The translations under genes were made by a program, and so were the position numbers. A model generated the notes under the pieces. It worked only from the letters and a program-made list of their open reading frames with translations. It searched no databases and had not been told where the DNA came from. Shown here piece by piece: positions 27,736 through 61,742 of a DNA stretch of 64,000 bases. Origin of the DNA: Aurantiochytrium sp. KH105 (taxonomy: Eukaryota; Sar; Bigyra; Thraustochytrida; Thraustochytriidae); NCBI GenBank assembly GCA_003116975.1, contig BGKB01000087.1, forward strand, positions 248,001 to 312,000. Reading direction: 5' to 3'. How positions within the stretch are numbered: position 1 is the first letter of the stretch; each line of letters opens with the position of its first letter.

Positions 27736-29175
27736 CGTCGAGCATTTGCCCCAGCGGAGCAGCGCAAAGCAGCGTATCGCACACACCCGATTCTTCTCGT
27801 CAGTCCCGCTGCTGCATTCCTTCCGTGGCGTCCGACTGCCGTGCGTCGCGGCCTCGCCTCGCCTCGCCTCGCCTGCAGAGTGCAATTTTCCCGAAGGACG
27901 CTCCGCGAGCCGTGCCATCATCTCCGCTCCGCTCCGCTCAACGTACCGGCTTGGGCTTCTCCTGCGCGGGGGCCGCCTGCTGCTCCGACATCCTTGCTCT
28001 CCTGCCTGTCTCTCCGTTCGCCGCCTCCGGTCTTCCTCTGCTGCTGCTGCTGCTGCTGCTGCGTGTGCGCGCTCGGCGTCTTGCTCGGTCTCGCTCGGGT
28101 TGGCGGTCTACTACATACAGGCCGCTGCTTGCTTTCTTCAGGAGTCAGCGGCCGCGACTGCGCAACGCAATTTGGCTGCGGCGAGTGGGTGGCGGCCGCC
28201 GCCGAGATCCGTATTGTAGTATATCCTGGGCCTTGGAAGCGTCCAAGGGGGGTTGCGCAGATTACCAGACGGCTGCCGGAGGGAGGTCTTGGCCAACAGC
28301 GGCGCGAGGAGATGCGGTAGCACGGCTGGGCGGCGGCGGGCGGAAGCGCGGGGAAGGCAGCGGCGAGGGGAGAGGTCGGGCGGGCGGGCGGGCGGGAGGG
28401 CGCGCGCGCGCGGCTTGGTGAGCGTGCGTCGCGACGGCGAGGCGAGGTGCGGGCTCCGCCCGGGGGCGCACCTTTGCGAGGTTCGATAGGGCCTGGATAG
28501 GATAAAGTCTAGGCTTGCGCCTGCACGTGCCGCGGCTCCTGCCTGTGCACGTGCCGCCGCGCGACGCCTCGCAGTCGCGGTCGTCGTCGGCTGCGGCGCG
28601 CTACGACTCCGCTCCGCGCGCGGGGAGCCGAGCTGCCGGCGTCTGCAGCTGCTGCTGCGTCTCCGCGCAGGTGCGTGCTCGCCTGTGCGCGGAACCGGCG
28701 CGGCGCGACGGCGCGACAAGCGAGCAATCGACTGTGGAAAAGAGAAGGAAAAAAGAAGAAAGAAAGACGACACGGAGGAGGACTAGCACGAGGACGAGGA
28801 CGAGGGCGAGCTCGAGGACGAGCACAGCGCGCAGACAGACTGCGAACCGGCGAGAAAGGAGGCCGCGGAACGCCGCGCGCGGAGAGCGGCGGTCGAGCAG
28901 GCGCGGCCAGCCGAGGAGGCGGGCGGGCGGGCGGGCGCGGGGCCGCGAGCAGGCAGGCGTACTTACATGTTATTTTGGCCCGACGGCAGCGAGTGCAAGG
29001 CAGGCGGGGCGAACGAGGCGCGGCCGGGAGCGTACATACTCGTCGCGGCGGGGGGCGGAGGGGCCCGGCGGCGACGCGTCGCGAGGGGCGCGTGGAGGGA
29101 AACGCCGACGCCTGTCCGCGGCCGACACGGAGCGAGCGAAGCGCGCGGATTGCGCGGACGACGCAGATTTCGAGG
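27736..29175. other. Divergent promoter region (COX17 / LRR-NEL gene)
   Basis: 1.44 kb of very GC-rich, CpG-rich sequence. It contains GCCTCGCCTC runs (about 27851-27868), a CTGCTG run (28038-28062), a GGCGGGCGGGCG run (28376-28398) and a similar one near 28921-28940. Large overlapping frames on both strands are Arg/Ala/Pro-rich and are taken as noncoding. The LRR-NEL frame is open upstream to 28675, but the extension is low-complexity. Confidence 0.5.
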
Positions 29176-32100
29176 ATGAAGCGACTGTCGCAACGCGTGG
29201 CGCACGTTCGAGAGAGCCTCGCGCGCAGCGTAGGTAGCAGCAACAGCCGCCGCGCCGAAGACGAGGACGGGGACGAGGACGACGACGGGGAAGAGAGCCA
29301 AGTTCTCGAGCTCTTGCCGCTCGAAGATGTAGAGGAAGGAGAAGAAGAACTGCAAGGAAATCAGACCGACGACGCAGACGCTGCCGCCGCCGTTGCCGCC
29401 AAGGAATTAGAGGAGGAGGCAGCGCGGCAAGAAGATGCGCGCGCGCAAATGGAGGCAAACATCGAAGCCTGGGCGAATGAGGAAGAGGGCGTGAACCCCG
29501 AAGAACAAGAACGGCGCTCATGGCTTGCTGCGGATCTGGTCCGGTGCACACGTGAACCCGAAGAGTTTGATGAGAAGGTCTATATTATCGAACAGTTACG
29601 GCTGATCTCCGAGGCCTTGCCGTTCATTTCAGACTTGGTGAACAAGCATCAGCTCGACACCTTTGCCAAATTCAAAAGCGTTCGCGAATGGGACCTGGAA
29701 GATTACGGCGTGGATGACTGGAAAGCGCGACGCTCAATTGCCGCAGCCGCGAGAAAGTGGTCTCGCGGCGAAGACCTAAATCTGTCGCTAGAAGCGCTGA
29801 CAAGTCTACCGGACGGCCCGCTTGAGCTCTTTGCCAATGTTAATCTGAGCTCATCCAGGCTGACACAGCTTCCCGAGGATCTCTGCGTGCACGGCAAATT
29901 GAACATTGCTTTCTCGAGCAGACTTCGCAAGTTGCCTGCAAGGCTCCATGTCGACGGGGATCTTGCTGCTGAGCGTTGCGTACGTTTGCGCGAGATCTGC
30001 GAGGAGCTGCACGTTGGCGGCTCGCTCGTTTTAAAACGCTGCGAGGCGTTGGAGCGCCTCCCACTGCGAATGGAGGTGTTGACGAACCTCGTTCTTGCTT
30101 CCTGTAAGTCGTTGACGGCGCTTCCCGACAACATGCACATTCGCGGCGATCTGGACCTGAAGCGCTGCGAGTCGCTCGAAGCGCTTCCCGGTGGGCTCCA
30201 GGTCGATGGCCGCCTCACGCTGCGATATTCCAAGGTGCGCGAGCTGCCCGAGGATGTTGTCCTCAATGGGGACCTGGACATCGCGGACTGTGACGGTTTC
30301 AATCTTTGCGAAGGCTTCTCGCTGGGAGGCACTCTGTTGGTCGATGAATGGACCTTTGGCGATGACTTTCCGCGGCACTTGCACGTCGGCGGGAGCCTGG
30401 ATCTCGAGATCTTTTCGCTCGAGTGCTTGCCGCCCTTGCGTGTGGATGGAACGCTGCGCTTGGGGTCGTCGTTGCGGGAGATCGAAGGCCCTTTGCACGT
30501 GGGAACGCACCTGCTGTTGATGTCCTGTTCGGCCAGTCTCCCGCGCGGCACAATCGTGGATGGAAAGGTCGAGCTGGTTCGATGCCACGGGCGACGCGAG
30601 CTCCGCGGTCTCCAAGTGGGCTCGGCCCTCGTGTTGCAGTCGTGCTCGCGCATCAAGGATATTGATGACATTGACCTCAAGGGCTCGCTCAGCATTGAGT
30701 ATTGCCACTCGTTCGAGCGATTCGGTAGCAACGTCAAGGTAAATGGCGGTGTGCTGATTCGAAACTGTTACAAATTTCGCGAGCTTCCAGAAAACTGGAA
30801 GGTGAGCTCGCTGCACATCGTGGGGACGTCGGTGTCAGAGTTGCCGAGCGGTCTACGCGTTGACGGCCTGCTGCGCGTGGCGAGCTGCCCATTGACTCGG
30901 CTCCCAGACGACATTCAGGTGGATGGCAACGTCGAGATTTTGTGCGATATCGAGTATCTGCCGGCGTCATTATGTACAGTGAACGGAGACCTTGAAATTG
31001 CTTCGAGTGTGATTGAGGCCCTGCCGTCGCCGCTTCGTGTGACGCAGTCTTTGCGCGTCTCGCAGTGTCCAAAGCTTGAGCGCCTCGACGGAGACTTGCG
31101 CGTGGGTAAGGACATTCTCGCGGATCGCTGCGTTGAGCTGGTGACGCTTCTTCCGGACAATTTCCATGCATTGAGCACAGTATCGGCGGTTGGATGCCCA
31201 AAGCTCGAGCGCGTGGGCGCTCATCTGCAAGTGGAGGGCGATTTGAATCTACACGAAGCAGTTTCGCTCAAGGTCCTGGATGATGTATATGTGGGGCGGT
31301 CTCTCTCATTGTCTCGATGTACTGCACTGGAACGTCTGGGAAACAATGTGCAAACGGGCCTTGACTTGAGTTTGGGTTGGTGCACTGCCCTCACGCAACT
31401 CCCGCGGGTTGTCAAAACGGCGGGCGTTTTTACGCTGCACGGGTGCTCGTCGCTGGAGACGCTCGACGTGGAGCTCGACATTGGGTGGGACCTTGACCTG
31501 CGCGGGACAGCTATCTCCCGGCTTCCGTCGCGCGGTCGCGTGCGCGGGGACCTCTTGGCAGAAAATCTCAAGATTGTCGAGCTTCCGGCGAACTTGGCGA
31601 TTGATGGCCACATTTCGCTTCGAGGCTGCACGTTGCTGGAGAGAATTCAACTGCCCTGGAGCTCGGTGTACTCGATCGATCTTTCGAACACCAAAGTGAC
31701 GAGTTTGCCGGACAATTTGCGCATCAAGGGGGATCTCATTCTTTGCAACAACGACTTGGAAAGTCTGCCTTCTGGCTTGCGCGTGGAAGGTCTCTTGAAC
31801 GTTACAGGATGTCGCAAACTGCGCAAGATTCCAGATGACCTCGCGGTCGCCAAGTCGATCCTCGCCAATGACTGCGTGTTGTTGGCTTCATTGCCCGCGA
31901 AGCTGCGCGTGCAGAGCGACCTCTCGCTCGTTAACGCCACCTCTCTCGCGGCGCTACCCGAGGAGCTCGAGGTGGCTGGACGTTTGGACTGCAGCGGCTG
32001 CTCGGCGCTTTGGACTGCAGGATCGCAACTGACCGTGTACCAGAACTGCTCGTTTGCAATGTGTGTGTCGTTATCTGCGCTCCCAGACGAACTCTATGTT

Positions 32101-33639
32101 GGCGGGGACCTCGATTGCTTTGGCTGTGCTTCCATTGAAGTGCTCCCCGCAGAAATGTATGTGGGTGTCTCGCTGTATCTGACGGAATGTATTGGCATCT
32201 CAAGCTTGCCTGCCTCAATTTTGCGGTGGGGGCCGACGCCTTCGGGAGGGCGGCACACGATTGATCTAACGGGGACCTCCATCTTCGAAGACCGCATTGT
32301 CGAGCTGCGGCAAGAGGCGGCGTCGTCGGTGAATTTGCTCGTAACGCGCCCGAACGCGTCGCCGGAGCGTAACTTTACGAATTTACGCACTGCTGTGATG
32401 TTTTGGTTTGCAAAGGCTGGAGCGTCGGCGCTGAGGAGCGCCGGTGTAGAATCCTCCGAGGATGAAGAGTCTGTGTCGGAGGATGTGCATCTCGCCGAGC
32501 CTGAGCCCGAAGAAGTTGTCGTCGTCGTCGAAGAAGAAGACGAAGACGAAGAGGAAGCTGCCACCACGATGGTCGCCATTGACGCCGACGCCGCTCTCGC
32601 TGCTGAAGTCGCCGACGAGGATAACAGGGAAAGGGCCGAGGAAAATGCGGGGCATGTGGAGAACGAGGAAGTCGACGACAACGGGGATGGGAAGGAGGAT
32701 GAGGAGGAGGATGAGGAGGCTCAGATCCTCGCCCAGTCTCAGCAGCTGGCTTCCGAAGTAGAGAACGTGGTGCCAAAGATCAGCCTTCGGGGCGTGCTCC
32801 TCTTTTTGAGCAAGCTGACGGTGGCCAAGGAGTACAAGCGCGAGGATCTGCGTGAGTCGCTGGCAAGGCGAGTCGTAGATGTATTGAGGCTCCTCGTGGA
32901 TGAGGAGGATGCTCGCGACGAGCTCCTCACACGCATGGGCGATAGTGTCGATGCGTGTGGCGACAAACCGATTCAGGCATTGAACCAAATGGCCGTGATT
33001 GTGCGAACGGTGAATGCACGCGGTAATCGCGAGGCTCTGCGCGAGCTCGCGGTGGGCATTGCGCGACTGCAGGTCGTGCAGCGACATGCTCAAATGAAGG
33101 TGGACTCTTTTCAGCGTCCTGTGGATGAAGTGGTCATCTTTTTGCGCTTTGAGGTGGTCCTTGCAGGTGAACTCAATTTACCCGTGCCAGCCGCAGACCA
33201 GCTGTTTCCGCACTTTGTGCTTGTGACGGATGAGGAGTTGAATGCGGCACGTGACGAGGCGCTGCAAATTACAGGTCATGGCGAGGCTTTCGAGACGTGG
33301 CTATCGCACTGGTCAGAATGGCAGCGCCAGATGCGTCTTGAAGCGGCCAAGGAGCTGTCTTTTGAGCGACTGAAGCGAAACTCGCGTCGCTTTAGTTTGT
33401 CGTGGACTGATCTCTTTGGCAATCGTATGGCGGATCCTGTTCGCATTGGCGCAAATTCTTCGATTTGGGGTCTTCAGGATCTTTTGAAGCACTGGGTTCG
33501 TACAGGGATGGACTTGAACAATACGCCGCGGTCCATCGAGGAAATTCAGCATTTGACACGGTGTCGCTCCCTTCCGCGCCGTAGTCAGAACGAGCCGGTC
33601 ATGATTGCGGCACCCGAGCTCGATGCGCAAGAAATATGA
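29176..33639 (+). CDS. Giant LRR protein with a C-terminal NEL-type (IpaH/SspH-like) E3 ubiquitin-ligase domain
   Basis: The 1487-residue protein is read from ATG 29176 (MKRLSQRVAHVRESL). An acidic N-terminus (about 20-100) is followed by a SAM-like helical segment (about 135-195; LEDYGVDDWKARRSIAAAA). Residues about 204-1012 are roughly 37 LRR units of 19-23 residues of the type LPxxLxVxGDLxLxxCxxLxx, the 'LPx' kind of bacterial effectors. An acidic linker (about 1093-1185) leads to residues about 1199-1460, which match the NEL domain of IpaH/SspH/SlrP ligases. Shared features are the catalytic motif C1261-G-D1263 (CxD), then LAVGIARL, VDEVVIFLRFEVVLAGELNLP, VTDEELNAARDEAL and FETWLSHWSEW, in family order and spacing. 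NEL enzymes move ubiquitin from E2 to a substrate via a Cys thioester, with the LRR choosing the substrate. The frame has no break and its base composition is like its neighbours. Catalytic function is inferred. Confidence 0.85.
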   Translation: MKRLSQRVAHVRESLARSVGSSNSRRAEDEDGDEDDDGEESQVLELLPLEDVEEGEEELQGNQTDDADAAAAVAAKELEEEAARQEDARAQMEANIEAWANEEEGVNPEEQERRSWLAADLVRCTREPEEFDEKVYIIEQLRLISEALPFISDLVNKHQLDTFAKFKSVREWDLEDYGVDDWKARRSIAAAARKWSRGEDLNLSLEALTSLPDGPLELFANVNLSSSRLTQLPEDLCVHGKLNIAFSSRLRKLPARLHVDGDLAAERCVRLREICEELHVGGSLVLKRCEALERLPLRMEVLTNLVLASCKSLTALPDNMHIRGDLDLKRCESLEALPGGLQVDGRLTLRYSKVRELPEDVVLNGDLDIADCDGFNLCEGFSLGGTLLVDEWTFGDDFPRHLHVGGSLDLEIFSLECLPPLRVDGTLRLGSSLREIEGPLHVGTHLLLMSCSASLPRGTIVDGKVELVRCHGRRELRGLQVGSALVLQSCSRIKDIDDIDLKGSLSIEYCHSFERFGSNVKVNGGVLIRNCYKFRELPENWKVSSLHIVGTSVSELPSGLRVDGLLRVASCPLTRLPDDIQVDGNVEILCDIEYLPASLCTVNGDLEIASSVIEALPSPLRVTQSLRVSQCPKLERLDGDLRVGKDILADRCVELVTLLPDNFHALSTVSAVGCPKLERVGAHLQVEGDLNLHEAVSLKVLDDVYVGRSLSLSRCTALERLGNNVQTGLDLSLGWCTALTQLPRVVKTAGVFTLHGCSSLETLDVELDIGWDLDLRGTAISRLPSRGRVRGDLLAENLKIVELPANLAIDGHISLRGCTLLERIQLPWSSVYSIDLSNTKVTSLPDNLRIKGDLILCNNDLESLPSGLRVEGLLNVTGCRKLRKIPDDLAVAKSILANDCVLLASLPAKLRVQSDLSLVNATSLAALPEELEVAGRLDCSGCSALWTAGSQLTVYQNCSFAMCVSLSALPDELYVGGDLDCFGCASIEVLPAEMYVGVSLYLTECIGISSLPASILRWGPTPSGGRHTIDLTGTSIFEDRIVELRQEAASSVNLLVTRPNASPERNFTNLRTAVMFWFAKAGASALRSAGVESSEDEESVSEDVHLAEPEPEEVVVVVEEEDEDEEEAATTMVAIDADAALAAEVADEDNRERAEENAGHVENEEVDDNGDGKEDEEEDEEAQILAQSQQLASEVENVVPKISLRGVLLFLSKLTVAKEYKREDLRESLARRVVDVLRLLVDEEDARDELLTRMGDSVDACGDKPIQALNQMAVIVRTVNARGNREALRELAVGIARLQVVQRHAQMKVDSFQRPVDEVVIFLRFEVVLAGELNLPVPAADQLFPHFVLVTDEELNAARDEALQITGHGEAFETWLSHWSEWQRQMRLEAAKELSFERLKRNSRRFSLSWTDLFGNRMADPVRIGANSSIWGLQDLLKHWVRTGMDLNNTPRSIEEIQHLTRCRSLPRRSQNEPVMIAAPELDAQEI

Positions 33640-33877
33640 TCTTTTTTTTACTGAACATTTCTTCTTACATTTTGTTTTTTGCTGGTTGCTCTTTGATTGC
33701 AGCTTATCGCCGAGCGATAGCCATACACTCGGCATGTACGCAAAGAAGTGAGACCGACTTGAAGCTGCCACTGGTCACTGTTATAGAAAAGAAGATGCTG
33801 TGACGAAGGATGATGGCTTTACTTTATGTATAGTGAGTGAACAAGCAGAGCAGGAACGAGCAGAAACGTAAATAAGC

Positions 33878-34474
33878 ATGGCCAACGCAGAGGGAGCGCG
33901 ACTGACGCGCGAACTGGCAGAGGACGTGTCGGAGCACGTGAAGCGGCTCGCTAGCGACCCTCTGACGGCTCTCGTGCAGGTGCAACGGCACGTGCGTGAA
34001 AAGGGCCTCGTGGATCAGCTGACGGTCCGCGATGTACTCTTGCAGTCGCTAACGTCGCTGCGCGAGGGCGCTGCCGGGACGTCGCGCACGGAAACGGGCC
34101 CACGGCGCGTTCAGGATGCTGCGAACCGCGTGGGCGAGCTCTCGAACCGCATTCGCGTGCTGCAGGAGCGACTGGAGATTGTTTCAGGTATTCACCGCGA
34201 CGTGCAGACGCCACCTGGACGCAAACGTACTGGGAGCTCGGGTCGCCTGCGTCGTGTGCTGCAAAGCGCCACGGGGCGTGGGCAAACGAGTCCGTCTTCG
34301 CCCGACACACTGCCCTTGGGCGTAGGCCAAGGTCTGGATAATGAACTCATTTCCGGTGAGGTGGACGTTGACGAATATGCTCTGCAAATTTCCCGACTCG
34401 CACGAACCTTTGCGGAGCTCGAGGGGGCAAGCAAACGCAAAGAAGCTCGCGAGGGTAGATCAGGGCGCGAGTGA
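33878..34474 (+). CDS. Small helical protein, BORCS8 (MEF2BNB)-like
   Basis: The 198-residue protein begins 238 bases after the LRR-NEL stop. Residues about 8-45 (RELAEDVSEHVKRLASDPLT, then ALVQVQRHVREKG) resemble the first helix of BORCS8, where the pattern 'hhxxLAxxPSxALxxLQxHVR' is typical. Residues about 72-105 (VQDAANRVGELSNRIRVLQE) fit the second, coiled-coil helix. A Gly/Ser/Arg-rich linker and a further short helix (VDEYALQISRLARTFAEL) complete it. BORC recruits Arl8 to lysosomes for kinesin-driven movement. The match is short, so an unrelated coiled-coil protein is a fair alternative. A kinesin gene lies directly next to it in convergent orientation. Confidence 0.5.
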   Translation: MANAEGARLTRELAEDVSEHVKRLASDPLTALVQVQRHVREKGLVDQLTVRDVLLQSLTSLREGAAGTSRTETGPRRVQDAANRVGELSNRIRVLQERLEIVSGIHRDVQTPPGRKRTGSSGRLRRVLQSATGRGQTSPSSPDTLPLGVGQGLDNELISGEVDVDEYALQISRLARTFAELEGASKRKEAREGRSGRE

Positions 34475-37095: not shown

Positions 37096-37407
37096 GGTCA
37101 GCTAGCCAGCCCGCCAGCCCGCCTGCCAGCCCGTCTGCCCGCCGCGCAGTGCGCGACGGCAGCGCTATGGGTCGCGTGCGCTGACTTTCCCTGCGTTTGG
37201 CGGTGGTTTGCGCCTCTGCTAGTTGCGGCAACGGCCCCTCGTAAAAACGAACCACTCATGGCCTATTCTTCTTCTTATTATTATTAGCCAGCCGAGGCAG
37301 AGATGAGAAACCCTGCAAGGGCGGAGAGGGCAAAGGCATTGCAAAAGTGTGACGAATGTTGGCCTATGCAGTAAGGCAGTAAGACTGTCTTCGAAGACCA
37401 AGTAGAC

Positions 37408-37561
37408 GCGAAGGAGGAAGTTCGTGCGAGCGATTTATCGCTGAGGCAGGCAGCTGTTGATGGGGCGATGGACCCATTGTGATCGCGAAGGAGGAAGTTC
37501 GTGCGAACGATTTATCGCTGAGGCAGGCAGCTGTCGATGGGGCGATGGACACATTGTGATC
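37408..37561. repeat. 77-bp tandem duplication
   Basis: Two consecutive copies of a 77-base unit beginning GCGAAGGAGGAAGTTCGTGC, differing at only a few positions. A looser echo ('...GAGCAATGG...', '...GGACACATT...') continues to about 37650. It lies upstream of the kinesin gene and is not part of any coding frame. Confidence 0.85.
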
Positions 37562-40183
37562 GTCGGAGCAATGGTTTCATCTTATTATTCGCCGGAGCAA
37601 TAATTTCATTCTGGTCGCTAGAGCAATGGACACATTTTGTTCGCTAAAGCAACAGAGGGACAGCCTTTAATTCATCGGCTTCTTTGTTTCGTTTTGCATT
37701 TCAGGGATATCCGCAAGGGGAACATTATTTTACATGGCCGCTGCCGGAATTTTTATGTCTCGCTTTGAAGAGAAAATGTCGTTGTCACAATCACCTCTGC
37801 GTCAACACATTGACAATTGTAAACAACGAGAGAACAGAATAGCCCAGCGTTGTCAAGCTTTTCATGGACGCTGCCTTGATCATGAATGCAAGAAGAACAA
37901 GAAAGGAGAACGACCAATGTGCGCTAACGCATCATTTGTCTGGCTCCCCATCGATGACGTGCGGAGTTTGCGTTCAACCCCCCGACGCTTGGTCGCTGTC
38001 GATTTCCCCAAACCCAGCCAGATCAACGTTCTAGCACACCTCGCGTTCGCGCCCCCCCCCCCGCCTAGTCCGCGCACCCCCCCTGTCCAGGTGTGCACCC
38101 GGTTCTCCTCGCCACTTCCTCTCCGGGCGCCTCCCTGCCCAAACATTTGGTCCTCCGGGGCAATGTCCCCGCAGCGGGCGCGGTGCGGCCAGCCAGCTGC
38201 GGGCGCGGCGGGCGCGGCGGGGCGGGGGCCCCGCACCAGCGACCGAGCGCTGCTCGTCAGGCTCCACCCTCGGCCCTGCCTGCCCCTTGCTGCCTTCACC
38301 AAAAGTATCTATCTATCTCCGTCTGGCTGCTGCTGCGCGCGGTGGCGCTCATTTCATTTCATTCCCTTGCGCGAGAGGCGCTGGCGGTTGCACGGGCTCC
38401 GCTTTGCATCGCATCGCATCGCATTGCATCGCATTGCATCGCGTCGCGTCGCGTCGCGTCGCGTCGCATCGACGCGCGGGCGGGAGGTGCGAGCCGGAAG
38501 CGGCGGCTCGCAGGGAGACGGGGCAGGGGATCCTGGCTGGCGTGTGGAGGCCGAGGCGAGGCGAGGGAAGCGAGGGCACGGGTCGGGCCTGCCGAGGCCA
38601 CTTGCGAGGCGACCTGCGATCGTGACGCGGGCTCCTTGGCTCGGGCCAACGATCGAGCGTCTGTCTCTCTGTCTGCAGCCTGGCAGCTGCAGCTCGGCCA
38701 TCGGCCACCGACCACGATCGATCTTGCCTTTTGAACGGTCGGTGGAGCAACGGAAGGAAAAGAGGATTTCAAACCACGCGACAGCAACCACGAGGCGAAC
38801 GAAGCCCGCGCCACGCGCCCGCCCGTCGGCACGCGCCGCGACTGCGAGCCGCAGTGGCAGCTGGCTGGCGATCACGCTGCAGCTGGCAGCTGGCTGTTCA
38901 GATCGCGGGTCGATCTCTCTCTTGCTCGCTCGATCCACCCTCGAGCCAGGGGAAGGATGGCGTGCGTCGAGTGCCAGCCGCGGCACGAATGCACGCCCCG
39001 CGAGCGCGCGACGACGACCGGATGCGCATTCCATCCGCCATGGCCGCAGCCGAGGGTGGAGAGGGCGAGCAGCGCAGAGCGACCGTGTGCGCGCCGCGCG
39101 TCACCCGCCGATCCATGCGACGCCAGTTGGCCGGTCCCATGGCAGCTGCTGCTGGCTGCAGCTCAGCAAGCAAGCAAGCAAGCAAGCAAGCAAATGGGAA
39201 GAGGCAGCGCAGCAGCGGCCGCGGCGACGAACAAACAAACAAACTCACGTGACAGTGAGAGCGAGGCGAGGCGAGGCGAGGCCGGGGTGGAGTGGCGCGG
39301 CGCAGCACGGAGGGAGAGGCGGCGAGGCTCGGGCGGCGAGCGCACACCTCGGCGGTGCGCGCGAGTGAGTTGGTGGGTTAGTTTAGGTTAGCTTTTCCGT
39401 GCTGCAGCAGCAGCTGGCTGGCTGGCTGGCTGGCTGGCGCTGCTTCATTTGTGATGCGTGGATGCGTCGATGGGATGGCTCACAGTCAGAGAGAGCTATA
39501 CCTTGCGTGCGTCTCGCGACGCACGCTGCGCTCGCACGCGCGTGCGGTCCCGGCAGCAGCCAGCCAGGGGCCGCAGCCGCCTCCGTCCAGCCCTTGCTCG
39601 GTTTTTTTCTTGGCTCGACTGGCTGCGAGGACACTCAGGGGACACAGACAGGCAGACTCCCAGGCAGAGAGACAGACAGACAGACAGACAAACAGCAACC
39701 ATGGCAAGTCAAGTCCAGACTGACAGAGAGAGAGAAGAGGATTTCTTCGTTCCTGGGAGCACCGGGCGACGCTCTGCACTCACTGTCAAGAAGCGCCCGG
39801 TCCGGTCCGCCGGCCAGCTGCTCCGGTTCTGATGAGCACAGATCGCAGAGCCCAGTTCTGCCCTGCTCTGCTCTGCTCTGCTCTGCTCTGCTCGGCGCGG
39901 CGCGGCGGCTCGGTTCTGTTCCCTCGGCGGGAGGACGGGCGGACACGCGCCGGCAGCACCAGCCACAGGTGGCAGGGTAGGCAGGAGGGCAGGAACGAGC
40001 GCGGCCGGCCAGCTGCGGCACGGGCCGGGCAGGCTCTGGCCAGCGACCAGCGGCTGCGGCGAGCGGCCAGGTGCGGCGGCGGGGGCTGGCCGGCCCGGCT
40101 GCGCAGCGAGCAAGACCAGCCTGGGGTGGCGCGGGGCGGCGTATGCGAGCACGGGGGCTGGTTTGCTCGGCTGCCCGAACATG

Positions 40184-44287: not shown

Positions 44288-45176
<889 letters not shown>

Positions 45177-48702: not shown

Positions 48703-50128
48703 GTTGCGCGTTCCCTTTCCAGTGAGCCAAGCCAGTTCCTGGCCGACGACCTCGGACCCGCACGCCGCTGCCGGCCGATGACTTGGGGCGGGCGGGCTGC
48801 GTCCCGAGTCCGAGCTCTGCGGCAGGCTCGTCTCCGCAGAGAGCGAGCGAGCGAGCGAATGAACGGACGATTGGCTGACTGATTGATTGCTCGATCGATC
48901 GATTGACTGATTGCTGATCGACATGTGAGATGCCAGTGGCAAGCAACTTGTGCCGGTCCAGGAGACTTCTCGCGGTGCCGAGATCTGCCGTGAAAATCGC
49001 AGCTTTTGTGGCACGCTCAGCGGGTTGATGTGAGGCAGGCACGGGCATTGGCCAAGAAGGGGTGGCGGGAAGGGGGCGAGCGAGCGAGGGAAAGCGGTCG
49101 GTGGGCCGCGGGCGGATGAGGCTGGAGTAGCGCGCAAGATTTATTGATGCAGTCCCAACGATGGGACTGGACTCCTGCTAAAAGACGCGATGAGGTGACG
49201 TCGAACCAATTGATTCGGTCATTTGGGAAAACGGACAGTATAAGCGTAAAGAGCCAAGGCAACGCGCATGTGCCGCGAAGAACAGCTTGCGGGCGATGAG
49301 GAGCTTGACCAAGCGACGATTGGTACGATAGATACCTCTGGCGCGGTCATGCTGATCTTATTGGTGGGTGCCACCGTCAGAGCTTGAAGCGAGCTTTCTT
49401 GTATACGTGCTACTAAACACCGACGGTGGCCAATGGCGAGAAAAAAACCAAGAGATCAAGAGGGCTTGAGCAAGCGACGATTGGTACGATAGATACCTCT
49501 GGCGCGGCCATGCTGATCTTATTGGTGGGTGCCACCGTCAGAGCTTGAAGCGAGTTTTCTTGTATACATGCTACTAAACACTGACGGTGGCCAATGGCGA
49601 GAAGAAAACCAAGAGATCAAGAGGGCTTGAGCAAGCGACGATTGGTACGATAGATACCTCTGGCGCGGTCATGCTGATCTTATTGGTGGGTGCCACCGTC
49701 AAAGCTTGAAGCGAGTTTTCTTGTATACATTGACGTTGGCCAATGGCGAGGAAAAACCCAAGAGATCAAGAGGCTTTTCGTCGGTCAGATTCACCAGGCA
49801 CCTTGTGGTTCTAGACCGTTCTTCACTATTTACCAATACAGATCATCAGCAAATTTTCTTCTGCTGCAAAAGACCTAGTAGTACTACTACTGGGCCTAGA
49901 AGTCGAGGGCAGAGAGGCAGAGAGGCAGATACAGAGACAGGGCAGTCGAGCTCGTTCAACGCGGCCGTACGCCCGAGCTGTCAAGAGACCCGCGCGGAGA
50001 GGAGAGGAGAGGAGAGGAGAGGAGAGGAGAGAGGAAAAGGCGGCAGGCCCCTCTTCACTTCAAGTGCAAGCGCAAGCGCAAGCGCAAGCGCAAGCGCAAG
50101 CGCGAACATCAACCCCGCGCAGACGACA
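48703..50128. other. Divergent promoter region with 161-bp repeats and microsatellites
   Basis: About 1.4 kb between threonine dehydrogenase (-) and the FMN reductase (+). The left part is GC-rich with a GATTGATTGCTCGATCGATC run near 48880-48905. The middle carries the three-copy 161-bp repeat. The right end carries GGAGA repeats (about 49995-50032) and GCAAGC repeats (about 50067-50104), ending 25 bases before the reductase start codon. No gene is recognised. Confidence 0.6.
49311..49772. repeat. Three tandem copies of a 161-bp unit
   Basis: Copies begin with AAGCGACGATTGGTACGATA at 49311, 49472 and 49633, an exact 161-base spacing. They differ by a few substitutions; the third lacks about a dozen bases near its end. 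Each unit contains two inverted segments (GCCACCGTCAGAG and its approximate complement CCGACGGTGGCCA), so it can fold on itself. It lies upstream of the FMN reductase gene. Confidence 0.9.
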
Positions 50129-56104: not shown

Positions 56105-59100
56105 TTATTCGAACCTAAAGTTGTCGCCGACAATGTCCGGCGTGAGGAGAGGGCGCAGGCTCTGCTGGACGTGGGCACGCACGTCTGCGTCTTCGATCTT
56201 TTCCGCCATGTAGTGACGAAGACGTTGCGCACGAAGCCGAGCCCACGCTTGCTGTACAACAGCAAAATCGCTAAAGAATGGGTCTTCTTCGCCAGCAGGC
56301 TTTGACGCGCATGCGGCAACGTGCTCATGACAAGCATCTGAGTCATTGCCTGTGTCTTGCAGACACCATGCACAAAAATAGCATGCGCAAGCGCCACATT
56401 TGAGAGCACAGCAGCCATCAAAGTCAGCAAAGACTGTCGAGCAGCGCGGACACGACATGGCAAGGACCTCATCTTGAATGGCGCGAATGTGATTCTGCGT
56501 CGTCCGGTCCAATCCATGTTCGCGGAGCGCTGCGTCAACGCGGTCACGAAGCTGACGCTCTTGTTCGGCTGCAGCGTCTCGCTCAAAGTGCGCGCGCACA
56601 ATGTCGAGTAGAGCTGCAAAGTCCTCGTCTGGAACCGCGGATGCAATGGCTCGACCAGAAACAAGGAGTTCACAGTCGGGCGCGACACAGCACATGCTTC
56701 CATCCCGTCGTACGTTGACGTGAGCCTGAGCTTGAGTCGCGGCGCGAACCGACCCGCTCAGGCACTCTTTGCACGTAAAGTGGCCGTCGGCGCAAGAGAC
56801 GCCTCCACTGACTGGATAAACGTCGAGACAAATGACACATGAGGCCTTCTTCATAGGCTCGGCCTGGAAGGCTTCGTGACGCAAGGCCTCAAGTGGAGTG
56901 GGCCGCTGTGTCGGATTTGCAGACTGGAGAGACGAAATGAGTGCTTGAATTGCGTCAGACACCTCTGAGCCGTCAAAGAGCTCCGCGAGCACCACACCCA
57001 CAGAAAACATGTCCACGGCAGGCTCGACCTTGTCGACATTTCCGTTGCGGAGTTCTGGCGCCATGTACTTGATGGTGGCCTGCATCGGCTGCGTCATGGT
57101 CACATTGTGCGTCTGCACGCCGTCAAAGTCGCCCAGCACCGGCGACAGACCCTTTGCGAGAAAGACATTTTCTGGCTTGACATCGCAGTGCACGAAGCCT
57201 CGCGAATGCAGATCGTGCAGCCCGCTCAGAAGACCGATAGCGATGCGCAGACGCGTCGCCAAGTCTGCGTGCGAATGATCGCGAATCCACGTGGCGAGGT
57301 CGCCACCCGAATAAAACGGCATCAGAATGCAGCCATGATGCGCATCCTGCATGAAGGCGCCCTGAATCTGGACAACGTAGGCCGATTGAATCTGGGCAAG
57401 TGCCGCAACTTGATGGTAAAAGCGACTGCTCCACGCCTCGCTGGCGAGATGAAACACCTTGAGCACGAGATCGCGGCCATCGGGGCCACGCACTTTTTGC
57501 ACAGACTTGCCAGGCTTGGACGCAAGCTCCTTGAGAGTGACAAAGTGCTCGCGACGAGCCGTCGTCCGCCATAAGCCCAGCTTGGACAGCTCCAGCGGTG
57601 CCCCGTCGTCGCCCACACCCAGGCGCTTCAGCCACTCTTGGTTCCGGAGCAGCTCAGGGTAGTGCTCTTCTGCGTGACGCAACAAGCGAGCTCGCTTGTT
57701 GCGCAGCTCGCTGTCGAGTTTGTCAACACTTCCGGTTTGAGCAAGCTCTTGCTCCAGGTCAGCGATTCTCGCTTGAGCTTCCTCGTCACCTCCTCTGGCA
57801 TCCTCGCGGGCGTCGTCGAGTTCGAAAGCAAGACGCTTGCGCTTTCTCGTCTTGTTTCTGAGGCTCTTGAGAAGAAGCTCTGCCCCCTCGGTGTTTGGCT
57901 CGGTAAGTCCAGACGTGAGGCGAGAGAGCAAATGCCCAAGGTCCTTTACGCGCGAGACCACGCTCGAAATCGTACGAGTGTAAAACGAGAACATGCAGGC
58001 CAACGCACGTCGCACTTTGTCGAGCGGGGCATCTGCCATGGGATTGCCTTTCGACAAGGCGCTGAGCTCCGCAACAAATGCTTGGTGCACATTTTGAAGT
58101 TCCAATACCAACTCCTGGGATCTCTCGGGATAAGTCAGCGTCATGAAGAATGTAGGCTGAATGCCAAGGCGCCTCGTGCTCTCTTCTAGTGCGTTGAGAG
58201 CTGCAGTGGTGCGCTCGCGTGCAGCAATCGTATCATGGCGAGCCTCCCACGCCTTGATGGCCTCCATCATGGTTCGAGTTGCCTCCTGTACTTGTCCAAA
58301 GGTCACTAGTTCCACTGCATCATCGACGTTTGCCGGTTCACCCAGAATGTCTCGCCAGAGCTTGCGACTAGTGTCGATCACGTCGTTTGCATCATCTTCA
58401 AGCTCACGAAGCTTGATTTGCGAACTCTTTGCGAGAGTCTCTCGAATATACGCGATAAGGTCGCGCCGCATCTGGTTCCGTTCAGGGATCTTTTCGGGGT
58501 CTGTCTTGACGGCTTCCTGCAGTGTGGTGAGCGCTTGCTCTTTCTCAGATACAGCTGCTTGCTGCGAGTCAAAGTCTGCAACATTGGCAATCGGGTTTTC
58601 GCGTGAGAGCTGCTCGGCAAAGAAATCGCGCAGCATTGGATAGTGGAGTTCAGCCTTTTCCTCGCTACGCTTTGTCCGGACCTTGGAAAGCTCCGCGGCA
58701 AGAATCTCCAGCTTGCTCGTTTGCCCAGGACCTACAAACACTTGCAGCAACGCACGGCGGTCTTGCAAGCTTGCTATCCCCAGTTTCTTAAGCTGAGCGG
58801 AAGTAAGACTGCGAATCTTTTTCAATGTGTGCACGCCCTGCTCGTAAAGCTTGACAACCATCTCTCGCAATGCGTTGGTTTGGAGCTGCGCCAACGGTAA
58901 CGAATGTATAAAAAGAAGGAAGGCGGACAGCTTCATATGATGTTTGGAAGAAGCATTCGCAATTGCCTTCCTTATTCCAAGGGACTCGCTCGAAAGACCT
59001 ACGCTGTGCTTGAAAAGAAGCTTGGCTACAATAAGAGCATTGTTCTCATCCCTGGCTTTGCAAACGTAGAATAGCGCTGTTTGGCCTAGAGTGTCCCGCG

Positions 59101-61742
59101 CGTCGATTTGAGTCCCGCCAATGATCAACTTTTCTGCCTCCGAATTGTCGCCGTTCTTGCACGCCTGCATAAGAGGCGTCTGACTCTGTCCGTACAGAGC
59201 TCGATTGCGGTCGAGAGCGGCCTCGACAGCACGATGTCGGTGGCTGATGCTGTAATTCTAAAAAATGTCAGAAGAAGCAATTTGATTCGGGTTGTGGGTT
59301 TTCATAGGGACTTACTCGAGCGTTTGTAATGTTTTATTCTCTGCGAGTGCATTTGCCAGCGCCGTAGCGCCCTCGTGGCCAATGTGGTTGTAATCAAGAC
59401 TGCGCTCGTCATAGCATGAGACGCCAAGATGAACGAAATCGCGCCAAAGGTTGCATTCCGTCGCATTCCATGTGTGCGTACGTACGTGAGTTGTGGTCAG
59501 CTCTTGTTGCTTTTTGAGCTTCTGGCCCCACTTTTACTTTGTCGCAATGACTTACTCTAGCGTCTGCAGCGACTCATTGTTTGCGAGTGCGTTCGCCAGC
59601 GCCGTAGTGCCCTCGTGGCCGATATGGTTGCCATTAAGACTGCGCTCGTCATAACATGAGACGCCAAAATGTGAACGAGATCGCGCCAAGGGTTGTATTC
59701 CGTCGCATCCCATGCGAGTGTGCGTACGTGAGCTGTCGTCAGCTATTATTGCTTGCTTCTTGGGCTTCTGGCCCCACTTTCACTTTCTCGCAATGACTTA
59801 CTTTAGCGTCTGCAGCGACTCATTGCTCGCGAGTGCGTTCGCCAGCGCCCTGGCGCCCTCGTTGCCGATCTCGTTGCCTCCAAGACTGCGCTCGTCATAG
59901 CATGAGACGCCAAAATGTGAACGAAATCGCGCCAAGGGTTGCATTCCGTCGCATTCCGTGCGTGCGTACGTACGTGAGTTGTGGTCAGCTCTTGTTGCTT
60001 TTTGAGCTTCTGGCCCCACTTTTACTTTGTCGCAATGACTTACTGTAGCGTCTGCAGCGACTCATTGTTTGCGAGTGCAGTCGCCAGCGCCGTAGTGCCC
60101 TCTGCGCCGATCTTGTTCCACCCAAGACTGCGCTCGTCATAATATGAGACGCCAAGATGAACGAAATCGCGCCCAAGGGTTGCATTTCGTCGCATCCCAT
60201 GCGTGCGTGCGTGCGTGCGTGAGTTGTGGTCAGCTGTTGTTGCTTCTTGGGCTTCTAACCCTACTTTTACTTTGTCGCAATGACTTACTCTAGCGTCTGC
60301 AGCGACTCATTGTTCGCGAGTGCGTTCGCCAGCGCCTTGGCACCCTCTGCGCCGATCTTGTTGTACGAAAGACTGCGCTCGTCATTACATGAGACGCCAA
60401 GATGAATGAAATCGCGTCAAGGGTTGCGTTCCGTGCGTGCGTGTGCGTATGTGAGTTGTGATCAGCTGTTGTTGCTTCTTGGGCTTCTAACCCCACTTTT
60501 ACTTTGTCGCAATGACTTACTCTAGCGTCTGCAGCGACTCATTGTTCGCGAGTGCGGTCGCCAGCGCCGTAGCGCCCTCGTGGCCGAGATTGTTGCTATT
60601 GAGACTGCGCTCGTTATAGCATGGGACGCCAAGATGAANTGCGTGAGGGCGTGCGTACGTGAACCGTGGTCAGTGCTTGTTGCTTCTTGGGCTTCTGGCC
60701 CCACTTTCACTTTGTCGCATTGACTTACTCTAGCATCTGCAGCGACTCATTGTTTGCGAGTGCGTTCGCCAGCGCCGTAGCGCCCTCGTGGCCGAGATTG
60801 TTGCTATTGAGACTGCGCTCGTCATAACATGAGACGCCAAGATGAACGACATCGCGCCAAGGGTTGCATTTCGTCGCATCCCATGCGTGCGTACGTAAGT
60901 GAGTTGTGGTCAGCTCTTGTTGCTTTCTTCTTGGGCTTCTGGACCCACTTTGACTTTGTCGCAATGACTTACCTTAGCGTCTGCAGCGACTTACTGCTCG
61001 CGAGTGCGTTCGCCAGCGCTGTAGCGCCCTCGTCGCCGATGTTGTTCTCCCAAAGACTGCGCTCGTCTTAACATGAGACGCCAAGATGAACGACATCGCG
61101 CCAAGGGTTGCATTTCGTCGCATCCCATGCGTGCGTGCGTGCGTGAGTTGTGGTCAGCTCTTGTTGCTTTATCCTTGGGCTTCTGGACCAACTTTGACTT
61201 TGTCGCAACGACTTACCTTAGCGTCTGCAGCGACTCACTGCTCGCGAGTGCGTTTGCCAGCGCCTTGGCACCCTCTGCGCCGATCTTGTTGTACGAAAGA
61301 CTGCGCTCGTCATTACATGAGACGTCAAAATGAACGGAATCGCGCCAAGGATTGCGTTCCGTGCGTGCGTACGTGCGTACGTGAGTTGTGGTCAGCTCTT
61401 TGCTTCTTGGGCTTCTGGCCCCACTTTCACTTTGTCGCAATGACTTACTCTAGCGACTGCAGTGACCCATTGTTTGCGAGTGCGTTCGCCAGCGCTGTGG
61501 CGCCCTTGTCGCCGATATTATTCTCGCCAAGACTGCGCTCGTCATAACATGAGACGCCAAGATGAACGAAACCGCGTCAAGGGTTGCATTACGTCGCATC
61601 CCATGCGTGCGTACGTGCGTACGTGAGTTGTGGTCAGCTCTTAATTTGGGAGGTCTCACAATCTGTCATATACGTACTCGATTTCTGTCGCGCCGTTTTC
61701 GATTGTCTCGATCGCTCTGTTGAGCTCATCTTCGTCGCTCAT
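56105..61742 (-). CDS. Twelve-exon LRR - ankyrin-like - protein kinase - RING/RING2 (RBR-type E3 ligase) protein
   Basis: Exon 1 is 61678-61742 (MSDEDELNRAIETIENGATE). Ten 84-nt LRR exons follow, then a 3145-nt last exon (56105-59249). Joined at GT-AG sites in one phase they total 4050 nt: 1349 residues plus stop. Residues 22-302 are ten 28-residue ribonuclease-inhibitor-type LRRs. Next come an ankyrin-like part (about 303-385; GQSQTPLMQACKNGDNSEAE), a SAM-like helix bundle (about 429-475) and a long helical region. The kinase domain (about 875-1095) has K899, HCDVKPEN (D991) and DFD (1009-1011) instead of DFG. RING1 begins C1106-VIC. A C6HC RING2-like module at 1235-1275 has C1248 at the spacing of the parkin catalytic Cys (C-x2-C-x9-C). 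A separate IBR is not visible. It is likely a sensor-type kinase/ubiquitin ligase; role unproven. The paralogue at the right edge shares its C-terminus. Confidence 0.8.
59316..61532 (-). repeat. Ten tandem exon-intron cassettes, one LRR per 84-nt exon
   Basis: LRR exons lie at 61449-61532, 61217-61300, 60973-61056, 60729-60812, 60521-60604, 60289-60372, 60044-60127, 59802-59885, 59556-59639 and 59316-59399. Every exon is exactly 84 nt. Each begins after AG with the last base of a codon and ends with the first two bases of the next, so any can be skipped or added without changing frame. Each encodes a variant of L-x-x-N-x-I-G-x-E-G-A-x-ALA-x-ALA-x-N-x-SLQ-x-L. The introns between them (148-162 nt where intact) are near-identical to each other. 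The 60605-60728 intron is short and contains the N at 60639, so one or more cassettes may be collapsed in the assembly. Confidence 0.9.
60639..60639. other. Single-base assembly gap inside the LRR cassette array
   Basis: A lone N lies within an intron of the array, where the intron is about 35 bases shorter than its neighbours and its sequence jumps from one part of the unit to another. This is typical of a collapsed tandem repeat. Confidence 0.9.

What the first reader, a model, noticed from the sequence alone, without database searches (positions are those of the whole stretch)
29176..33639. A bacterial effector-type NEL ubiquitin ligase domain on a giant eukaryotic LRR protein
Seen: about 37 'LPxxLxVxGDLxLxxC' repeats, then a C-terminal domain with C1261-G-D1263, LAVGIARL, VDEVVIFLRFEVVLAGELNLP, VTDEELNAARDEAL and FETWLSHWSEW in the order and spacing of the NEL domain. 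Known: NEL ligases (IpaH, SspH1/2, SlrP) are described from Gram-negative pathogens and symbionts, with the LRR selecting substrate and a CxD Cys carrying ubiquitin. Here the gene sits among ordinary nuclear genes, has the same base composition, is unbroken over 1487 codons and has a SAM-like N-terminus. Inference: an old horizontal transfer, since domesticated, or a eukaryotic branch of the family that has not been described.
Basis: partly seen in the sequence, partly recalled or inferred. Interest (0 to 1): 0.93.

Follow-up and report, generated by a model that had tools for sequence, protein, structure and literature searches.

The report
Protist family of NEL ubiquitin ligases
A eukaryotic (probably marine protist) genome carries about sixteen genes of its own with a ubiquitin-ligase domain described from bacteria that inject it into host cells, some of them fused to eukaryotic recognition domains and kept intact by selection.

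Summary
Confirmed, and larger than reported. ORF 29176-33639 (+) is unbroken (1487 aa), with about 38 LRRs and a C-terminal NEL domain (PF14496, residues 1207-1392, 78.1 bits, cut-off 24). C1261, D1263 and D1317 fall on residues reported to matter in IpaH9.8. The 76-Mb genome has 32 NEL matches, none with an internal stop, read as 16 loci in two haplotypes. CxD is kept in 16 of 16 paralogues. In 11 of 11 allele pairs tested, dN/dS is below 0.17 in NEL plus tail and lower than in the N-terminal part. Paralogues fuse NEL to SPRY (2 loci) or SAM (1). Neighbours and haplotype pairs speak against contamination; paired PUFA-synthase-type genes suggest a thraustochytrid. The 26 eukaryotic sequences form one side of a branch (100/99). 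A conserved ~60-aa module follows NEL and was not found in the bacterial set held; it resembles U-boxes in profile comparison only. Best reading: a resident cysteine-relay E3 family. Activity, expression and direction of transfer are untested. Searches of one open-access library showed no description of such a family.

The parts
29176..33639 (+). LRR-NEL gene, 1487 codons plus stop, single open frame
   Evidence: the allele on contig C30 has the same MKRLSQ start and no stop in the part read
29236..29535 (+). acidic N-terminal stretch (residues 21-120, 37% D+E), probably disordered (inference)
29623..29733 (+). SAM-like segment (residues 150-186), below the family cut-off
   Evidence: SAM_TNK 13.8 bits, cut-off 25
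29809..32211 (+). LRR solenoid, about 38 repeats of 20-21 residues (LPxxLxVxGDLxLxxC)
   Evidence: single-sequence AlphaFold2 model of residues 196-600: pLDDT 84.3, repeated short strands
32476..32775 (+). acidic linker between LRR and NEL (residues 1101-1200, 40% D+E)
32794..33351 (+). NEL catalytic domain (residues 1207-1392)
32956..32964 (+). CxD motif, C1261-G-D1263: predicted ubiquitin-carrying cysteine and its aspartate; invariant in 16 of 16 paralogues
33124..33126 (+). D1317, position of Asp397 of IpaH9.8; D in 15 of 16 paralogues, E in one
   Evidence: importance of Asp397 from PMC9320238 (passage)
33385..33579 (+). C-terminal module conserved in this family (residues 1404-1468); U-box-like by profile comparison only
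   Evidence: conserved; G1415 15/16, P1421 15/16, W1440 16/16, G1444 16/16, D1446 15/16; not found in bacterial frames held; profile match to recalled U-boxes; no HMM match

Best explanation
This is one member of a resident family of about 16 NEL-type E3 ubiquitin ligases of a eukaryote, most likely a thraustochytrid. The LRR (in paralogues SPRY, SAM or other N-terminal parts) binds a substrate; an E2~ubiquitin docks on the C-terminal half of NEL; ubiquitin passes to C1261 as a thioester, helped by D1263 and D1317, and then to the substrate. Shown: open frames, NEL homology, conserved catalytic residues, purifying selection between alleles, in-frame fusion of paralogues to eukaryotic recognition domains, one eukaryotic side of the tree. 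Inferred: catalysis, E2 use, LRR as substrate reader, regulation by the LRR. An ancient acquisition followed by duplication and domain shuffling is the simplest history; its direction is inferred.
For: PF14496 E 8e-22; 32 genomic matches, 32 over cut-off, no stops inside, 0 of 14 control genomes; profile of 16 paralogues against PDB: the 12 sequences found at E 1 or better are IpaH, SspH1, SspH2 or SlrP, best E 3.3e-27; CxD 16 of 16, D1317 15 of 16; profile-profile with 13 of the 17 Pseudomonas NELs prob 98.3, E 1.7e-14; NG86 dN/dS of NEL plus tail 0-0.163 and lower than the N-part in 11 of 11 allele pairs, though in one pair barely (0.142 against 0.147); SPRY in L011 and L024, SAM in L016; eukaryotic rows one side of a branch, 100/99, SH-aLRT 100 in a quick tree without five long-branch rows; eukaryotic neighbours; paired pfaD-type genes at 710 and 682 bits; Foldseek of a low-confidence model: ranks 1-9 are IpaH/SspH/SlrP, prob 0.80-1.00, ranks 10-50 at 0.13 or less.
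Against: No activity or expression data. The AlphaFold2 model of NEL plus tail is poor (mean pLDDT 46.9, pTM 0.35) and no Foldseek match reaches E 0.001, so the fold is not independently shown. The first 28 positions of the Pfam model are not matched in the window gene. Only one eukaryotic genome could be searched. Substrates and E2 are unknown.
Confidence: 0.82

Rival explanations
1. NEL is a eukaryotic invention: the bacterial effector NELs were captured from eukaryotes such as this one, and not the other way round.
For: Bacteria have no ubiquitin (PMC9320238, passages). NEL is patchy in Pseudomonadota: 9 of 398 genomes, one of them the centre genome, which was chosen because it has NEL. One protist genome holds 16 divergent paralogues (identities of 15 to the window 34-48%). 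Eukaryotic and bacterial rows are two sides of one branch, root unknown.
Against: Only one eukaryotic genome was seen; bacterial NELs are also diverse, up to 7 matches per genome, and many score higher against the Pfam model.
Confidence: 0.15
2. The C-terminal module is a degenerate U-box, so these ligases are hybrids: a U-box-like part holds E2~Ub and the NEL cysteine relays ubiquitin, comparable in logic to RBR ligases.
For: Windows of A1 starting at columns 0-260 score at most 15.6 against the U-boxes, windows of the Pseudomonas NEL alignment at most 11.3.
Against: No U-box match for 13 of the 16 tails scanned against Pfam with E up to 10, though HMMER's filters drop most weak matches; no U-box chain among PDB matches of two tail profiles; PF04564 rings at 11 places in this genome, none at a NEL locus. 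At single-sequence level five U-boxes score 15.6-19.8 while the best of 73 unrelated pieces reaches 20.8. Full-length A1 against the U-boxes gives only prob 11-31.
Confidence: 0.3
3. The family has lost ligase activity and serves as LRR/SPRY scaffolds.
For: No activity data; the catalytic part could be kept for binding ubiquitin or E2 (inference).
Against: C and D of CxD are invariant in 16 of 16, D1317 in 15 of 16, and NEL plus tail is more constrained than the N-terminal part in 11 of 11 allele pairs.
Confidence: 0.08
4. Bacterial contamination or a recent bacterial insertion.
For: NEL is described from bacteria (PMC9320238).
Against: Eukaryotic neighbours, a tandem array of LRR exons with intron-like spacers in the window, two haplotypes, fusion of paralogues to SPRY and SAM, base composition within the range of neighbours, 24-29% identity to the 17 bacterial loci found.
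Confidence: 0.01

Closest known systems
IpaH / SspH1 / SspH2 / SlrP LRR-NEL effectors (PF14496)
   Same: LRR followed by NEL, CxD, the second aspartate; collinear match (one paralogue, L009, to SlrP model positions 281-678; IpaH chains)
   Different: Nuclear gene of a eukaryote; about 38 LRRs; acidic linkers; extra conserved C-terminal module; paralogues with SPRY or SAM; family of about 16 loci. All NCBIfam equivalog scores are far below their cut-offs
Pseudomonas NEL proteins
   Same: NEL with CxD; the 17 loci of the genome-contig scan are all Pseudomonas
   Different: 24-29% identity; in 15 of 17 loci the NEL lies in a frame of at least 1562-1625 aa within the 8.5 kb held; the C-terminal module was not found in them
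Claimed NEL-like part in an algal NLR (PMC7145615, passages)
   Same: A printed claim of NEL-related sequence in a eukaryote
   Different: In the passages seen the relation is drawn through an LRR-type (ODAL) domain; no catalytic CxD motif or ligase family is described there
U-box (PF04564)
   Same: Order and approximate spacing of DPV, an aromatic residue, and a helix with W and G in the C-terminal module (comparison with recalled sequences)
   Different: No HMM match; not accepted as a member

Membership tests
NEL E3 ligases (PF14496) | Score above the curated cut-off | tested here: met
   78.1 bits against 24; 32 of 32 genomic matches above it
NEL E3 ligases (PF14496) | Catalytic CxD | tested here: met
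   C1261/D1263; 16 of 16 paralogues
NEL E3 ligases (PF14496) | Second acidic residue (Asp397 of IpaH9.8) | tested here: met
   D1317; D in 15 of 16, E in 1; correspondence read by me from the IpaH alignment (60 residues after the cysteine, as Asp397 is from the cysteine of the CxD with Asp339) and PMC9320238
NEL E3 ligases (PF14496) | LRR domain before NEL | tested here: met
   for the window gene; 22 of 26 family frames have a best period of 20-22, without a shuffle control for these; L015 and L019 have no repeat of the strict kind. The review notes NEL members without LRR
NEL E3 ligases (PF14496) | NEL helical fold | tested here: inconclusive
   Model all-helical but pLDDT 46.9; Foldseek ranks 1-9 NEL, E above 0.001, and scoring includes sequence
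NEL E3 ligases (PF14496) | Ubiquitin thioester and ligase activity | not testable with these tools
   needs protein
NEL E3 ligases (PF14496) | Regulation (autoinhibition) by the LRR | not testable with these tools
   needs protein
Bacterial type III secreted NEL effector | Encoded by a bacterium and injected | tested here: not met
   eukaryotic nuclear gene
U-box (PF04564) | HMM match | tested here: not met
U-box (PF04564) | Profile-profile similarity in register | tested here: inconclusive
   U-box sequences recalled, not fetched
SAM domain | HMM match above cut-off in the window gene | tested here: not met
   13.8 bits against 25

The most novel reading that the evidence does not exclude
The NEL fold is a further cysteine-relay class of E3 native to some eukaryotes; bacterial IpaH/SspH-type effectors derive from such eukaryotic genes, and in this lineage the catalytic domain has gained a U-box-like E2-holding module.
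Probability: 0.1. Interest if true: 0.96.

Novelty: new variant of a known kind. Interest (0 to 1): 0.86.

Why it matters
NEL ligases are described as a class with no structural homology to eukaryotic E3s in the catalytic domain (PMC12506513, passage). A eukaryote that uses about 16 of them as its own enzymes would add a class to the eukaryotic ubiquitin system, offer a route to the origin of these effectors, and give a natural set of NEL domains re-aimed by SPRY, SAM and LRR parts.

Tried and rejected
Contamination: rejected (see rivals). SAM domain in the window gene: not accepted. Viral origin: a scan of viral contigs with A1 gave 9 pattern matches, none a relative; its patterns were short. 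U-box membership: not accepted, kept as a rival. My first LRR expression was wrong (5 hits) and was replaced by a position template. Structure of NEL plus tail: poor, with an alignment of the window and 16 of the 17 Pseudomonas sequences (L043 left out as a copy of L042). LRR model against PDB: no match at E 0.001; hits include LGR4 and SspH1 LRRs but also beta-helical lyases, so it says no more than 'solenoid'. Sigma-70-type promoter scan of 28800-33900: 0 found, shuffles mean 1.4, uninformative.

Rows left out. Tree: 64 of the 69 frames that the family profile found; L049, L066, L069, L075 and L079 were dropped as partial or broken. L068, L071, L073, L077 and L078 were fetched but not found by my profile at E 1e-3 and are absent, although L068 and L073 score above 139 bits in Pfam; the profile is therefore not exhaustive for bacteria. 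Alignment A2 holds 13 and A5 14 of the 16 tails (the degenerate L017 and L027 are out of both, L021 out of A2); A4 holds 13 of 17 Pseudomonas sequences. Neighbour scan: 10 of the 16 other frames of at least 300 aa listed. A first run of the reduced tree failed at printing and was repeated. 18S rRNA (RF01960) and TIGR02813 searches did not complete.

Full report
What is there. The frame 29176-33639 (+) encodes 1487 residues without a break. It has an acidic N-terminus, about 38 LRRs of 20-21 residues, an acidic linker and a NEL domain at residues 1207-1392 (78.1 bits, E 8e-22, cut-off 24). The repeat count is far above shuffles: 31 template matches of at least 6 of 8 against a mean of 1.5 and a maximum of 6 in 500 shuffles. 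NCBIfam matches are SlrP and XopAE, both far below their cut-offs.

Where it lies. The window is G000:C87:248001-312000 of a 76.0-Mb genome in 367 contigs. Ten of 16 other frames of at least 300 aa were scanned: six match (EGF-like, adenylate/guanylate cyclase, GT8, kinesin, WD40, ANK-kinase), four do not. GC and GC3 of the gene are within the range of five neighbours. The genome has two pairs of pfaD-type genes at 710 and 682 bits in frames of 1845-2152 aa, and six matches below the cut-off; the same model rings in 3 of 14 control genomes, over the cut-off in 1, all three bacteria by name. Two large pfaD-bearing PUFA-synthase subunits fit thraustochytrids by my recollection; no rRNA or species name could be obtained, so the label stays probable.

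It is a family. PF14496 matches 32 places in this genome, all over the cut-off and none with a stop inside, and none of 14 control genomes. I read them as 16 loci in two haplotypes: 11 pairs were checked by sequence; five (C1/C26, C27/C32, C13:204/C24, C367/C222, C17/C36) rest on similar scores and match lengths only. Of the 32 places I read 27 in DNA (26 full NEL domains plus the partial allele L049), at least one per locus. Sixteen representatives were aligned: C and D of CxD are invariant, and the position of Asp397 of IpaH9.8 is D in 15 and E in one. One place (C31 and its pair C93) carries two NEL genes within 10 kb.

Architecture. Pfam scans of 15 paralogues (7, 8), each one open frame: SPRY above cut-off in L011 and L024; LRR_1 and LRR_6 above cut-off in the same two; SAM above cut-off in L016 (62.4 bits); LRR_EndoS above cut-off in L026; a sub-threshold Arm match in L015; the others show NEL alone or with sub-threshold matches. 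The frames of L016, L020 and L029 run off the fetched stretch. A best period of 20-22 residues is seen in 22 of 26 family frames. In four paralogues scanned against NCBIfam, SlrP and IpaH models match below their cut-offs, for L009 collinearly from LRR into NEL.

Selection. For 11 allele pairs NG86 dN/dS over NEL plus tail is 0-0.163, over the N-terminal part 0.122-0.368, and NEL is lower in 11 of 11, in one pair barely. No significance test was made; the numbers of changes are small (5-26 per pair in NEL plus tail). For the window gene the allele was fetched only in part (154 codons of NEL, 7 base changes, no amino-acid change). Poorly aligned starts were trimmed before the count.

Relation to bacterial NELs. 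The 16-row profile finds 12 PDB sequences at E 1 or better, all IpaH, SspH or SlrP, best 3.3e-27. Profile-profile comparison with 13 Pseudomonas NELs gives prob 98.3, E 1.7e-14, over 159 columns. The genome-contig scan returned 17 loci, all Pseudomonas, 24-29% identical; its two search patterns were short, so this does not show that Pseudomonas is the closest group. Among 398 Pseudomonadota genomes 9 have NEL, the centre genome included. In a tree of 64 rows the 26 eukaryotic ones are one side of a branch (100/99); the smallest supported set beyond them adds four bacterial LRR-NEL-sized frames of about 600 aa (100/98). Without five long-branch rows the eukaryotic branch keeps SH-aLRT 100 in a quick tree of 59 rows. 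The root is unknown.

Fold. AlphaFold2 with an allowed but redundant alignment gave mean pLDDT 46.9. Foldseek against PDB still ranks nine NEL chains first (prob 0.80-1.00; the next is 0.08), but with E above 0.001, TM about 0.3 and a score that includes sequence. I count this as weak support. The LRR part (residues 196-600) modelled as a single sequence reached pLDDT 84.3.

The C-terminal module. After NEL the 16 paralogues share a stretch with W1440 and G1444 in 16 of 16, G1415, P1421 and D1446 in 15 of 16, and V1422 in 13; the D before P is D in 10. L017, L021 and L027 depart most. A profile of it matches the 26 full family frames held at E 2.6e-12 or better (16 of them built it, the rest are alleles); in the bacterial loci held the best match is E 0.15, outside the NEL frames, and NEL frames give 4.6 or more. 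hhalign of the tail against 13 Pseudomonas NELs gives prob 0.2, against four LRR-NEL-sized bacterial frames 0.06. IpaH chains match the family profile up to position 245 of 302, so the module replaces or follows the end of the bacterial domain. It has no HMM match in Pfam or PDB. Profile comparison with recalled U-boxes gives prob 50-76 and beats 100 of 100 column shuffles (run for the four-sequence set), but single-sequence controls overlap, and PF04564 finds 11 other places in the genome and no NEL locus. I give the U-box reading 0.3.

Mechanism. By analogy with the bacterial enzymes (PMC9320238, passages; PMC12506513, passages): LRR or another N-terminal part recognises the substrate, the C-terminal subdomain binds E2~Ub, the cysteine of CxD accepts ubiquitin and passes it on. 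In a eukaryotic cytosol E1, E2 and ubiquitin are at hand (established knowledge). Activity, regulation and substrates are inferred. The patchwork of recognition domains would fit a set of E3s with different targets.

Literature. Seen: listings (20 of 56; 10 of 17; 36 of 37; 10 of 528; none found); outline and passages of PMC6274744; passages of PMC7145615, PMC7029713, PMC6557245, PMC9320238 and PMC12506513; a find without hits in PMC12221091. Of the 36 listed papers that hold 'NEL domain', judged by title and start of abstract, none announces a eukaryotic NEL ligase family; PMC7145615 claims NEL-like sequence in an algal NLR through an LRR-type domain. PMC7029713 used PF14496 as one query against Giardia; I saw no result for it. 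The library is open-access only and the protein database was off, so database entries or papers of this kind may exist.

Noticed in passing
window 59343-61642 (-): Tandem array of 244-bp units, about 9.7 copies; units hold a ~28-aa LRR exon (such as ...GDEGATALANALASSKSLQTL) ending at a GTAAGT and a ~160-bp intron-like spacer, next to the ANK-kinase frame 56105-59170. Looks like duplicated exon-intron LRR units; one N lies at 60639.
   Followed up: partly
G000:C31:320700-330699 (L009) and its pair L010: Two NEL genes on opposite strands within 10 kb, in both haplotypes.
   Followed up: partly
window 49298-49730; 37407-37562; 44652-44934: Other tandem repeats: 161 bp x2.7, 77 bp x2.0, 13 bp x22.7.
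   Followed up: no
G000 C72, C155, C17, C58: pfaD-type PUFA-synthase genes in two pairs, a pointer to the organism's likely group.
   Followed up: partly
   Followed up: no
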